Shown here piece after piece: positions 54,466-61,338 of a stretch of 64,000 nt of DNA. Numbering within the stretch: position 1 is the first letter of the stretch; each line of letters starts with the position of its first letter. Source of the stretch: a virus. Under the pieces are notes generated by a model that saw only the letters and a program-made list of their open reading frames with translations, did not search any database and was not told the origin of the DNA. Location: positions 181,437-245,436 of IMG/VR virus record IMGVR_UViG_3300043410_001471. The stretch is one strand, 5' to 3'. Both the position numbers and the translations under genes were made by a program.

Positions 54466-54839
54466 GGGGATGCCCGGTATTGACAGGTATGAAGTGTTAG
54501 TACAATTGATGCAAGCAGGATTAGATGGAAATCCTTAAACACCTATCGAACAATAAACGCAGTAGAATTATCTACAATGACCTTCGAAGATGCTATGGCA
54601 TTCGTTGGTGCTGATTTAGCAGTAGCTGCCTAATCTCTCCCGCACACATCGTGGGACTTGAAATAGAATGTGAACCCAGGTGGATACCAATTGAACCCGA
54701 AATCGAATTGGAAACATTAATGATAACGAATGTATAAATCTTTATCTATTTTGTCAGTTAAGAAAAACTGACTAAGCTTGTGAATGAGGTTTATTAAACC
54801 ATATTTTGGACGAGGGTTCGACTCCCTCCATCTCCACCA
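54466..54839 (+). ncRNA. ssrA: tmRNA
   Basis: The 5' end GGGGATG pairs with CATCTCC at 54829-54835, followed by a genome-encoded ACCA. The T-arm is GAGGG-TTCGACT-CCCTC just before. The 5' domain 'GGTATTGACAGG' is typical of tmRNA. After 'AATAAAC' a resume codon GCA opens a 24-codon tag frame that ends ...GADLAVAA and TAA, close to the usual ALAA ending. Length 374 nt is normal. It would rescue stalled ribosomes and mark proteins for degradation. It stands between a HAD gene and the block of putative packaged proteins. Confidence 0.93.
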
Positions 54840-58197: not shown

Positions 58198-58202
58198 ATA
58201 TA

Positions 58203-58234
58203 TTTGGAAGTTAAAAAAAACTTTCGTATATTTG
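58203..58234 (+). promoter_or_regulatory. Bacteroidota-type promoter for initiator tRNA
   Basis: TTTG at 58203-58206, 20 bp spacer, TATATTTG at 58227-58234, followed by a boxA-like element and the tRNA at 58271. Confidence 0.8.
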
Positions 58235-58252
58235 TATCAACAAAAGAGAAAA

Positions 58253-58264
58253 AGTTCTTTAACA
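58253..58264 (+). promoter_or_regulatory. boxA-like antitermination element
   Basis: AGTTCTTTAACA matches the boxA consensus of rRNA leaders (TGYTCTTTRAnA). It lies between a promoter and a tRNA. Confidence 0.6.
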
Positions 58265-58270
58265 TTATAT

Positions 58271-58341
58271 CGTGGGGTAGTGTAACGGTAGCATATTGGG
58301 CTCATAACCCTAAGACGGAGGTTCGAATCCTCCCCCCGCAA
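58271..58341 (+). tRNA. tRNA-fMet (CAT), initiator type
   Basis: Anticodon loop CTCATAA. Two initiator hallmarks are present: the first acceptor pair is a C-A mismatch, and the anticodon stem has three consecutive G-C pairs (GGG/CCC). T-arm GGAGG-TTCGAAT-CCTCC. It heads the RNA cluster under its own promoter. Confidence 0.9.
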
Positions 58342-58367
58342 CTAAAGTAAAAAAATTTACAAATAAA

Positions 58368-58399
58368 TTAGGAAATGTGAAAATGTTTTCGTATATTTG
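58368..58399 (+). promoter_or_regulatory. Bacteroidota-type promoter for RNA unit A
   Basis: TTAG at 58368-58371, 20 bp spacer, TATATTTG at 58392-58399. No protein gene follows; a structured RNA unit does. Confidence 0.7.
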
Positions 58400-58404
58400 T
58401 AAAA

Positions 58405-58513
58405 CAAAATGAGATAGTGGTTGAAGCCAACATCTAATAAAACCGAATGTGTGAACATCTTTCCAACATATTAGCGGAGGGGTTAAAAAGCCGGATATCA
58501 CTAATTCATTTTG
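58405..58513 (+). ncRNA. Structured RNA unit A
   Basis: Closing stem CAAAATGA (58405-58412) / TCATTTTG (58506-58513), continued by TAGTG / CACTA. Inside are GTTG-AAGC-CAAC, an ATGT-GTGA-ACAT hairpin with a GNRA loop, and CTAATA / TATTAG. Own promoter; no frame of use. Confidence 0.6.
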
Positions 58514-58521
58514 AAAAATAT

Positions 58522-58588
58522 AATAATTGTGGGAGAGTAGACTAATTGTAAATAAGACGCCCGTAAAATGTACAACATTTCAATTATT
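58522..58588 (+). ncRNA. Structured RNA unit B
   Basis: Closing stem AATAATTG / CAATTATT (58522-58529, 58581-58588) with an inner hairpin AAATGT-ACA-ACATTT. It follows unit A without its own promoter. Confidence 0.45.
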
Positions 58589-58599
58589 ATTACAAATAA

Positions 58600-58631
58600 T
58601 TTGGAAGTTTGAAAAAACTTTCGTATATTTG
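58600..58631 (+). promoter_or_regulatory. Bacteroidota-type promoter for RNA unit C
   Basis: TTTG at 58600-58603, 20 bp spacer, TATATTTG at 58624-58631. Confidence 0.78.
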
Positions 58632-58635
58632 TAAA

Positions 58636-58693
58636 GTTGTTCAGAAGTAGGAAGTATATATGGTGTAAGTAAACATAGCTGAAAATGTTCAAC
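58636..58693 (+). ncRNA. Structured RNA unit C
   Basis: Short transcript downstream of its own promoter, with terminal pairing GTTG / CAAC and TCAG / CTGA. No coding frame. Pairing is weaker than in other units. Confidence 0.4.
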
Positions 58694-58723
58694 AAAAAAA
58701 ATTAAAATAAATTTGAAAGTTTA

Positions 58724-58755
58724 TTTGGAATTGTGAAAAAAAAGTATTATCTTTA
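58724..58755 (+). promoter_or_regulatory. Bacteroidota-type promoter for RNA unit D
   Basis: TTTG at 58724-58727, 20 bp spacer, TATCTTTA at 58748-58755. Confidence 0.65.
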
Positions 58756-58760
58756 CATAG

Positions 58761-58808
58761 TAAATGAGAAACTTATAGGCGATGAAAGATACTCGGTATT
58801 CAAATTTA
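58761..58808 (+). ncRNA. Possible small RNA unit D
   Basis: Behind its own promoter; only a 5-bp TAAAT / ATTTA closing stem is seen and the sole frames are shorter than 12 codons. Weak evidence beyond the promoter. Confidence 0.3.
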
Positions 58809-58830
58809 TAAAAAAATAATTGTAAAAATA

Positions 58831-58862
58831 TTAGGAAGTTTGGAAAAGTTTTCGTATCTTTA
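58831..58862 (+). promoter_or_regulatory. Bacteroidota-type promoter for unit E and the large RNA
   Basis: TTAG at 58831-58834, 20 bp spacer, TATCTTTA at 58855-58862. Confidence 0.65.
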
Positions 58863-58866
58863 CAAA

Positions 58867-58943
58867 GTAATCAGAAATCGTAAAAACATACCTGAAGTAA
58901 GAGTAACAAAGTTTACTATACCAAATGGTTGAAATCTGATTAC
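58867..58943 (+). ncRNA. Structured RNA unit E
   Basis: Perfect 9-bp closing stem GTAATCAGA / TCTGATTAC (58867-58875, 58935-58943). Inner AGTAA / TTACT and ACC-AAAT-GGT. It sits between promoter and boxA, so it may be the 5' leader of the large RNA or a separate small RNA. Confidence 0.55.
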
Positions 58944-58949
58944 AAAAAA

Positions 58950-58962
58950 TGTTCTTTAAAAT
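58950..58962 (+). promoter_or_regulatory. boxA-like antitermination element
   Basis: TGTTCTTTAAAAT, matching boxA, placed at the start of the hairpin-rich 0.9-kb region. Confidence 0.6.
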
Positions 58963-59844
58963 ACTGAAAAGATTATACATAGTAGATTCGTTCTACATAG
59001 TATAACAACGGCCGCCTATGGTCGTGAAATAAACTACGAAAGTAGGATAAAGTGGGTACATTGGTTAATGTAACTGCGGCTACTCCCCCGTAAGGGAGCA
59101 AGCTTGAGTAGGCAAGTGAGATATCATTCTGACTTTGTAGGTGGGGGTAACACTATCATCGAAGAGCCGGAATGACTGGGCAAATGTAGATTGTTCAGTT
59201 GAGATGGGAACATCAATAAGAATAACTCATAGAATTATTGTGAAAAGTAAGGACTTAATCTCTCCTTATTATTGCGTGATTCAATACAAAAGTGGTCTTG
59301 AGAATCAAGCTATCCGAAAGGACGTGAGATAAGATAATGTACGAGTGGTGTCGTTATTATCCTTTAGACTGGGACACCAATCCCTTCTATTGAAGATGAC
59401 TTGAAGTATGGTGATAGGGATATCACATTGAGTAGTATAGTATTCTGTTGTTCAAAAGATAACGGAGCTGGTGGCAAACCACTACTCGAATCCATCTACA
59501 AACCAAAACTCATTTGCATTTTGACGCAAAATCATAAATCAAGTAAGCAAAAGTGTTTGCCAGTTTCAGATGAAAGGTGTGTACATAGTAGGGAGTTGTT
59601 CCTTGCCACGATACCTCCGCAAGAGGTCTGTGATTCTTTTGAAAGGTTTCTAGCATCGCAAGTGTGAATCAGCTCGGCAGGGTTGAAGAAAATAAGTAGG
59701 AAGAGAGTAATCTGAAACTCTAAGAGTGGTTGGCTATACTAACCCACATTGAATTGGTACATCTCAAAAGGGTGTGGAAAAGAAAGGAAACAATAATCTT
59801 TCGAAAGCTGGTTCACAAAAAGGAGTATTCTCATCCTTATATAA
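58963..59844 (+). ncRNA. Candidate giant structured RNA (GOLLD/ROOL-like in setting)
   Basis: About 0.88 kb with no convincing gene but many hairpins: a long one at 58973-59005 (TTATAC / GTATAA outside, GTAGA / TCTAC inside), CTAC-GAAA-GTAG at 59034, TACATT-GGTT-AATGTA at 59057, GATG-GGAA-CATC at 59203, TAAGGA / TCCTTA at 59248, TCC-GAAA-GGA at 59313, GGTGTC / GACACC at 59347, GTGATA-GGGA-TATCAC at 59411, GTGG-CAAA-CCAC at 59471, ATTTTG-ACG-CAAAAT at 59518, GCAAA-AGTG-TTTGC at 59547, ACCTC-CGCAA-GAGGT at 59613. Several have GNRA loops. Size, phage origin and place in a tRNA cluster resemble GOLLD and ROOL RNAs. The class is not proven. Short frames in it look non-coding. Confidence 0.6.
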
Positions 59845-59915
59845 GCGAGATTAGTGTAACGGTAGCACAGCAGCCGTCCAGGTTGCAAGATGGGGTTCAA
59901 TTCCTTGGTTTCGCT
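59845..59915 (+). tRNA. Odd tRNA, anticodon TCC position (Gly-like), G at 33
   Basis: Cloverleaf with acceptor GCGAGAT / GTTTCGC and anticodon stem GCAGC / GTTGC, loop CGTCCAG. Position 33 is G instead of the universal T, and the T-stem is weak (several G-T pairs). It directly follows the large RNA and may be a decayed tRNA-Gly or a tRNA-like domain of it. Confidence 0.5.
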
Positions 59916-59921
59916 CTTCGT

Positions 59922-59975
59922 AGTGGTTTACGGCAGATAGGTTGGGTGTATCTCTCCAATAACTGGAAATCCACT
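59922..59975 (+). ncRNA. Structured spacer unit
   Basis: Closing stem AGTGG-TTT (59922-59929) / AAA-T-CCACT (59967-59975) with inner TTGG / CCAA. Non-coding spacer after the odd tRNA. Confidence 0.4.
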
Positions 59976-59999
59976 TTAAAAAAAATGACAAATAGTGTG

Positions 60000-60114
60000 A
60001 AGATATGGTTTTCGTAGGGGATTTTCGCCTTAAACAATCTCAACCAATACGAATTAGTGTTGATGGTAAAAGCGGCTGTAGCTAGGCCTTTGAAAGTACC
60101 ACCCTACAAATCTT
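60000..60114 (+). ncRNA. Structured RNA unit between the two odd tRNAs
   Basis: Nested stems AAGAT / ATCTT (60000-60004, 60110-60114) and GTAGGG / CCCTAC (60014-60019, 60102-60107) close a 115-nt element with further pairing in the middle (GGC..GCC). No frame of use. Confidence 0.5.
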
Positions 60115-60131
60115 TCTTTTATAGCTTATAA

Positions 60132-60202
60132 GCGGTGGAAGTGTAATGTTTGCACACCTAGCGTCCAGCTAGGGGGAGGTGGTTCGAATCCACACCACCG
60201 CT
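60132..60202 (+). tRNA. Odd tRNA, anticodon TCC position (Gly-like), G at 33
   Basis: Well-formed: acceptor GCGGTGG / CCACCGC (7 of 7), anticodon stem CCTAG / CTAGG, loop CGTCCAG, T-loop TTCGAAT. The loop is identical to that of the odd tRNA at 59845 although the stems differ. G33 is the abnormal base; C32 and G38 can pair, leaving a 5-nt loop. Confidence 0.65.
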
Positions 60203-60207
60203 CAATT

Positions 60208-60277
60208 AACTAATTTATTGAGGATGATAATAACCGGTGCATGACACGACGTGGCGTATTTTGAAGATGAATTAGTT
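60208..60277 (+). ncRNA. Structured RNA unit F
   Basis: Closing stem AACTAATT / AATTAGTT (60208-60215, 60270-60277) after the odd tRNA. Inner part has CACGACGTG-type pairing. Non-coding. Confidence 0.45.
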
Positions 60278-60326
60278 TATTTTATAAAAAAATAACTTTT
60301 AATAAATTTTTACATATATATTAACA

Positions 60327-60886: not shown

Positions 60887-60974
60887 TGAATTGGCTAAGA
60901 CATCGTAAAATCGATGGGTGGTGATTCCGAATTTATTTGTGAGCCACTTAAACACTGATAGCAATGTCAATTCA
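60887..60974 (+). ncRNA. Structured RNA unit G
   Basis: Closing stem TGAATTG / CAATTCA (60887-60893, 60968-60974) prolonged by GACAT / ATGTC. Inner CATCG-TAAAAT-CGATG and GTGG / CCAC. Lies between tRNA-Phe and tRNA-Lys. Confidence 0.6.
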
Positions 60975-60978
60975 ATTT

Positions 60979-61261: not shown

Positions 61262-61334
61262 AATACGAATCAACCGGGTGGCTGAAACCTGACTAGTAGT
61301 GGAGAATACCCACAACCCGGTCAATGTTCGTATT
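61262..61334 (+). ncRNA. Structured RNA unit H
   Basis: Closing stem AATACGAA / TTCGTATT (61262-61269, 61327-61334) and a second stem ACCGGGT / ACCCGGT (61273-61279, 61315-61321): 15 bp in all. It starts 1 nt after tRNA-Ile and ends 4 nt before tRNA-Trp. Confidence 0.65.
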
Positions 61335-61338
61335 AACT

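What the first reader, a model, noticed from the sequence alone, without database searches (positions are those of the whole stretch)
58963..59844. Giant structured RNA candidate in a phage tRNA cluster
Seen: about 880 nt with no believable gene but more than ten perfect short hairpins, at least three with GNRA loops, preceded by a host-type promoter and a boxA element and followed by a tRNA-like element. Known: GOLLD and ROOL are very large (about 0.5-0.9 kb) ornate RNAs of unknown function found mainly in phages, often next to tRNAs. Inference: this is a member or a new relative. It could equally be a new class. Coding explanations look poor because the short frames have odd composition and the hairpins ignore frames.
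Basis: partly seen in the sequence, partly recalled or inferred. Interest (0 to 1): 0.88.

Follow-up and report, generated by a model that had tools for sequence, protein, structure and literature searches.

The report
GOLLD giant RNA in a phage
The 880-base stretch is a GOLLD RNA, one of the largest known noncoding RNA families and one that can build hollow RNA cages, found here in a large phage; comparison with relatives adds a conserved rRNA-style start signal and a tRNA-like end signal that suggest how such phages make it.

Summary
The 5' half (59009-59426), which the Rfam model does not cover, is conserved too: in 25 full-length relatives 95% of cells pair over 109 pairs, with 546 two-sided changes (shuffles 159±14). 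No reading frame is conserved. So this is a new member of a known family, in a 245-kb virus record.

What is new lies around it. (1) A boxA antitermination signal of Bacteroidota rRNA type lies once, just upstream, in 81 of 84 distinct GOLLD loci (control 2.5%), usually behind a Bacteroidota-type promoter. (2) GOLLD is followed by a tRNA, decayed tRNA or acceptor/T-arm minihelix in 40 of 85 loci and by a terminator in 31, so RNase P probably trims one group. (3) A 45-nt hairpin absent from Rfam ("X", window 58761-58808) has GOLLD downstream in 64 of 98 occurrences and elsewhere precedes a second, Rfam-negative ~540-nt structured RNA candidate. The cage itself, and what the RNA is for, could not be tested here.

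The parts
58831..58862 (+). Bacteroidota-type promoter of the GOLLD transcript (-33-like TTAG, 20-nt spacer, -7-like TATCTTTA)
   Evidence: Read from sequence; close copies precede four other RNA genes upstream; a TAnnTTTG box lies within 120 nt upstream of boxA in 66 of 81 GOLLD loci, control 10%. This copy has one mismatch in each box.
58867..58943 (+). leader hairpin before boxA (perfect 9-bp closing stem 58867-58875 / 58935-58943)
   Evidence: Direct reading; relatives have a different small hairpin or element X in the same place
58951..58961 (+). boxA (GTTCTTTAAAA), rRNA-type antitermination signal
   Evidence: One copy upstream of 81 of 84 GOLLD loci; same motif in Bacteroidota 16S leaders and spacers
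58973..59005 (+). variable first helix (P1-like) of the GOLLD 5' domain
   Evidence: Pairing of TTATACATAGTAGA with TCTACATAGTATAA around an internal loop; position conserved, sequence variable
59009..59426 (+). GOLLD 5' domain (cap half)
   Evidence: 109 consensus pairs, 95.0% of cells paired, 546 two-sided changes versus 158.7 +/- 13.5 shuffled; nhmmer E 3.8e-90
59428..59837 (+). GOLLD 3' domain (Rfam RF02032, model 1-416 complete)
   Evidence: cmscan 301.7 bits, gathering 150, E 2.3e-85
59490..59550 (+). variable A-rich linker inside the 3' domain
   Evidence: Unpaired region of the model after the first 3'-domain hairpin, variable in length in A2; corresponds by position to the disordered linker in the published cage
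59845..59916 (+). tRNA-Gly(TCC)-like element directly after GOLLD; anticodon loop CGTCCAG has G instead of U at position 33
   Evidence: ARAGORN and Rfam (34.1 bits, weak); a tRNA-like element follows GOLLD in 40 of 85 distinct loci versus 4.8% control
58761..58808 (+). element X, small hairpin with own promoter, one transcription unit upstream of GOLLD
   Evidence: 64 of 98 distinct occurrences have GOLLD within 600 nt downstream; closing helix covaries; not in Rfam
58403..58513 (+). element W, ~110-nt structured RNA candidate with own promoter
   Evidence: 16 viral contigs; closing stem changes on both sides between relatives by eye; not in Rfam
58519..58592 (+). element Y, ~74-nt structured candidate; in two relatives it lies inside the GOLLD leader
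58636..58695 (+). element V, ~60-nt structured candidate with own promoter

Best explanation
This is a GOLLD RNA of a large phage that probably infects Bacteroidota. SHOWN HERE: it has both GOLLD domains, the structure is under selection, and no protein is encoded. INFERRED: host RNA polymerase starts at the promoter at 58831-58862; a leader hairpin and boxA load the host Nus antitermination factors, as in rRNA operons, so that the long untranslated RNA is not cut short by Rho and can fold while it is made; RNase P cuts at the tRNA-Gly-like element at 59845 and frees the GOLLD 3' end. INFERRED BY HOMOLOGY with the solved relative: the roughly 870-nt product assembles with copies of itself into a hollow 14-mer RNA cage late in infection. 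My best guess for the purpose, held weakly (about 0.25), is that the cage encloses its own linker or other molecules (phage tRNAs, ribosomal particles) during lysis. The confidence given is for identity plus structure plus the leader/tail mechanism taken together; identity as GOLLD alone is about 0.98.
For: Identity: full-length RF02032 match; relatives L002-L004 also score as GOLLD; 5' and 3' domains found together by profile in dozens of loci. Structure; no coding. Leader: 81 of 84 loci with exactly one boxA, control 2.5%, none inside the RNA; Bacteroidota 16S leaders carry GTTCTTTGA. Tail: 40 of 85 tRNA-like versus 4.8% control, 31 terminators; at least 12 are minihelices with acceptor and T-arm only (L011, L117, L063, L099, L105, L129, L136, L153, L114, L038, L045, L051), and the tRNA-Gly forms have lost a normal anticodon loop in several lineages, as expected if processing and not decoding is selected. 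Cage: the loop at alignment columns 881-885 carries a self-complementary GC or CG centre in nearly all of 79 sequences, matching the GC/CG switch reported for a self-kissing loop of the cage. GOLLD rises during lysis in the literature.
Against: No expression, processing or assembly data exist for this phage. Non-Bacteroidota GOLLDs (Acinetobacter phage L004, Mycobacterium L178, L058) sit behind tRNAs without boxA, so antitermination is not universal to GOLLD. L002 and L120 lack the boxA motif. One GOLLD was reported dispensable for phage production. Matching the 881-885 loop to the published loop is my inference, not by coordinates.
Confidence: 0.75

Rival explanations
1. GOLLD by identity, but the boxA-like sequence is a leftover or chance motif, and the RNA is expressed by read-through from upstream tRNA and small-RNA promoters, as in GOLLDs of other phyla.
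For: L004, L178 and L058 lie directly behind tRNAs with no boxA; several promoters lie upstream in the window.
Against: 81 of 84 loci keep exactly one boxA at -13 to -125 although the flanking leader is otherwise hardly alignable; 0 of 84 inside the 5' domain.
Confidence: 0.15
2. The tRNA-like tail is simply the first gene of the neighbouring tRNA island, with no role in maturing GOLLD.
For: GOLLD genes are known to lie near tRNA islands; many tails are normal tRNA-Met.
Against: Tails include minihelices that cannot decode; of 85 loci 71 have either a tRNA-like tail or a terminator.
Confidence: 0.3
3. A new class of giant RNA merely resembling GOLLD.
For: The 5' half has no Rfam model.
Against: Complete 3' model match; the 5' domain also aligns to the 5' region of the Acinetobacter phage GOLLD (E 5e-6).
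Confidence: 0.01
4. A protein-coding or decayed coding region.
For: Open frames of 63-95 aa exist.
Against: Stops in all 24 homologues, lengths often not multiples of three, strong compensatory change.
Confidence: 0.005

Closest known systems
GOLLD RNA (Rfam RF02032; cryo-EM 14-mer, PMC12286853)
   Same: Complete 3' domain, structured divergent 5' domain, about 0.85 kb, phage genome, tRNA island, A-rich linker in the right place, palindromic loop
   Different: 5' domain not covered by the Rfam model; boxA leader; no tRNA inside the linker; tRNA-like element outside, at the 3' end
ROOL RNA
   Same: Large ornate phage RNA near tRNAs that forms a cage
   Different: Unrelated sequence and structure; no ROOL match in the window
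rRNA leader with hairpin and boxA (Nus antitermination)
   Same: Promoter, hairpin, boxA, long structured untranslated RNA; same boxA letters as Bacteroidota 16S leaders
   Different: Product is a phage RNA; Nus binding untested

Membership tests
GOLLD RNA (RF02032) | Covariance-model score over the gathering threshold, model complete | tested here: met
   301.7 bits versus 150, positions 1-416 of 416
GOLLD RNA (RF02032) | Less conserved, structured 5' region of about 420 nt before the 3' region | tested here: met
   59009-59426; covariation of 109 pairs
GOLLD RNA (RF02032) | Overall size about 0.8 kb or more, no coding | tested here: met
   about 865 nt from 58973 to 59837; no conserved frame
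GOLLD RNA (RF02032) | In phage or prophage, near tRNA island | tested here: met
   245,436-base virus record, 23 tRNAs in the window
GOLLD RNA (RF02032) | Self-kissing loop with GC/CG covariation (bridge B8) | tested here: inconclusive
   Loop at alignment columns 881-885 shows a GC or CG centre in nearly all of 79, but its identity with L21a is inferred
GOLLD RNA (RF02032) | Assembles into a 14-mer RNA cage | not testable with these tools
   Needs RNA synthesis and microscopy
GOLLD RNA (RF02032) | Expression rises in lysis | not testable with these tools
   No transcriptome for this phage
ROOL RNA | Match to the ROOL covariance model | tested here: not met
   Full Rfam library scan of the window, no ROOL
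boxA/Nus antitermination leader | boxA consensus in the leader upstream of the RNA | tested here: met
   GTTCTTTAAAA at 58951; 81 of 84 loci
boxA/Nus antitermination leader | NusB/NusE binding and resistance to Rho | not testable with these tools
   Needs an experiment

The most novel reading that the evidence does not exclude
Bacteroidota phages use one expression cassette for giant noncoding RNAs: promoter, a conserved hairpin (element X or a substitute), an rRNA-type boxA, then a large structured RNA ended by a terminator or by a tRNA-derived minihelix. GOLLD is only one of the RNAs expressed this way; a second, ~540-nt structured RNA with no Rfam match (class A: L062, L101, L143, L147, L197, L199) and perhaps a third (class B) use the same leader. 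X may be an RNA antitermination or packaging signal specific to these RNAs.
Probability: 0.45. Interest if true: 0.7.

Novelty: new member of a known kind. Interest (0 to 1): 0.45.

Why it matters
GOLLD forms one of the few known natural RNA-only cages, and its role is unknown. A conserved start signal (boxA) and end signal (tRNA-like tail) give direct handles on when and how the RNA is made, and predict its exact ends. The shared leader also offers a way to find further giant phage RNAs without knowing their sequence: used as a probe it already led to one new candidate family.

Tried and rejected
Protein-coding reading: rejected. New class or ROOL: rejected. Thermodynamic folding alone as proof: too weak. 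RNAalifold pairing of boxA with the 3' domain: dropped as a likely artefact of invariant columns. GOLLD in cellular genomes: the genome-contig scan gave 9 hits, one of them a GOLLD over threshold (L178, Mycobacterium), the rest without a GOLLD match; two larger phylum searches failed technically. Rfam identity of elements X, W, Y and V: nothing credible at E up to 10. boxA as a general GOLLD feature: not so outside the Bacteroidota-type phages. 16S leaders: the motif is clear in 3 of 6 genomes, a fourth has a one-letter variant, and the other two, with short upstream sequence, showed none.

Full report
WHAT WAS CHECKED. The stretch 58963-59844 lies in the last 64 kb of a 245,436-base virus record, among 23 tRNA genes and about 4 kb downstream of a phage-encoded tmRNA. 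A scan against all of Rfam gives GOLLD (RF02032) at 59428-59837, complete from model position 1 to 416, 301.7 bits against a gathering score of 150.

THE 5' HALF. The Rfam model covers only the 3' domain. A blastn search found two 634-642 kb uncultured phages that match the window, one in the 5' half and one in the 3' half; both, and an Acinetobacter phage, carry GOLLD. A pattern from the 3' domain found 55 viral stretches, nearly all of those with enough upstream sequence having the same 5' motif about 700-760 nt earlier. Alignment of 25 distinct full-length members and a consensus fold give 109 pairs in the 5' domain: 95.0% of cells pair, 77 pairs show two-sided change, 546 such cells against 158.7 +/- 13.5 in shuffles and at most 83 in slid controls. 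Related sequences inflate shuffle tests, but the slid controls keep relatedness and fall to 38-44% paired; because the structure was derived from the same alignment, some of that gap is expected. The longest open frames have stops in all 24 relatives. The element is therefore one RNA of roughly 865 nt with both GOLLD domains.

FIT TO THE KNOWN CAGE. The solved GOLLD is a 14-mer whose 5' region (1-420) forms the caps and 3' region (421-833) the rings, with an unresolved linker at 497-538. The window RNA has the same layout: 5' about 430-450 nt, 3' 410 nt, and an unpaired, A-rich, variable stretch at about 59490-59550. The paper reports a self-kissing loop whose central dinucleotide switches between GC and CG; one loop in my alignment (columns 881-885) is CGCAA in 68 of 79 and has a CG centre (GTCGA) in 6. 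That this is the same loop is inference. Oligomerisation was not tested.

HOW IT IS STARTED. Upstream are a Bacteroidota-type promoter, a perfect 9-bp leader hairpin and GTTCTTTAAAA, which matches the published boxA consensus GYTCTTTAANA exactly (PMC5725501). In 84 distinct GOLLD loci, 81 have exactly one GTTCTT[TA][GA] within 160 nt upstream and none has it inside the 5' domain; random 160-nt pieces of the same loci have it in 2.5%. The rest of the leader is hardly alignable. A TAnnTTTG box precedes boxA in 66 of 81 (control 10%). Among six genomes of one Bacteroidia order with a 16S gene in reach, the 16S leader carries GTTCTTTGA or GTTCTTTGG in three and a one-letter variant in a fourth, and two 16S-23S spacers carry GTTCTTTGAC. 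GOLLDs of an Acinetobacter phage, a Mycobacterium and one further virus lack it and follow tRNAs directly. The simplest reading is that phages of Bacteroidota express GOLLD with the host's rRNA antitermination machinery. I found no paper in the held library that links GOLLD and boxA (one search returned only unrelated plant papers). The Bacteroidota host is itself an inference from the promoter type and boxA letters.

HOW IT IS ENDED. The tRNA-Gly(TCC)-like element starts 7 nt after the Rfam match. Its anticodon loop is CGTCCAG, with G where tRNAs have U33, and Rfam scores it only 34.1 bits. Over 85 distinct 3' ends, 40 have an acceptor stem plus T-arm starting within 60 nt (control 96 of 2000), 31 an intrinsic terminator and 14 neither; seven of the 14 are by eye further tRNA-Gly-like relics or tRNAs (L008, L024, L128, L069, L160, L049, L095). 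At least 12 tails are minihelices without D or anticodon arms. Acceptor plus T-arm is the minimal RNase P substrate (general knowledge), so a processing role is more likely than decoding. Cleavage was not tested.

NEIGHBOURS. Five similar promoters at 58200-58862 head tRNA-Met and small RNA candidates W, V, X and then GOLLD; none of W, Y, V, X is in Rfam. Its closing helix covaries: 84.7% paired, 121 two-sided cells against 35.8 +/- 7.0. In 23 of the 64, X lies in the GOLLD leader itself; in 41, including the window, another promoter-like box intervenes.

WHAT ELSE FOLLOWS X. Where no GOLLD follows, two other conserved, gene-poor regions often do. Class A, about 540 nt (12 contigs, ten full length), has X at a fixed distance in 7 and boxA in 8 of 12, ends in a terminator, has no Rfam match and shows moderate covariation in nine distinct sequences (46 two-sided cells against 20.3 +/- 3.4, slid at most 14). 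Class B begins with a tRNA-like element and ends in a terminator; it was not tested further. These are candidates only.

VERDICT. The finding itself is a correct recognition of a known family, hence 'new member of a known kind'. Its surroundings make the expression and maturation of giant phage RNAs testable and suggest a shared cassette; that part I could not find described, and it is unproven.

Noticed in passing
window 58761-58808; 98 distinct occurrences in viral contigs: Element X, a 45-nt hairpin absent from Rfam, marks GOLLD and tRNA transcripts of Bacteroidota-type phages.
   Followed up: yes
L062:6532-7077(-), L101:7524-8070(-), L143:790-1333, L147:7537-8075, L197:3506-4043: Class A: a ~540-nt noncoding, terminator-ended RNA candidate behind X and boxA, no Rfam match, moderate covariation; possible new large phage RNA.
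   Followed up: partly
L119:10079-10398(-), L076:1396-1717(-), L121:4891-5212: Class B: conserved ~300-nt noncoding region with own promoter and terminator behind X, boxA and a tRNA-like element.
   Followed up: partly
window 54466-54839: Phage-encoded tmRNA (tag AVELSTMTFEDAMAFVGADLAVAA); relatives of this phage carry similar tmRNAs near GOLLD (L008, L024, L009, L038).
   Followed up: no
window 58403-58513: Element W, ~110-nt structured RNA candidate with its own promoter, 16 viral contigs, not in Rfam.
   Followed up: partly
window 58519-58592: Element Y stands alone here but sits between boxA and P1 of GOLLD in L024 and L041, so these small RNA elements are modular.
   Followed up: partly
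window 60132-60202: Second tRNA-Gly(TCC)-like element with the same non-canonical CGTCCAG anticodon loop; found by Rfam, not by ARAGORN.
   Followed up: no
window 59920-60130, 60206-60282, 60887-60975, 61265-61335: Further short stretches between tRNAs with terminal inverted repeats, possibly small structured RNAs.
   Followed up: no
L178:254-683(-): GOLLD in a Mycobacterium sp. contig with a tRNA inside its linker and tRNAs on both sides.
   Followed up: no
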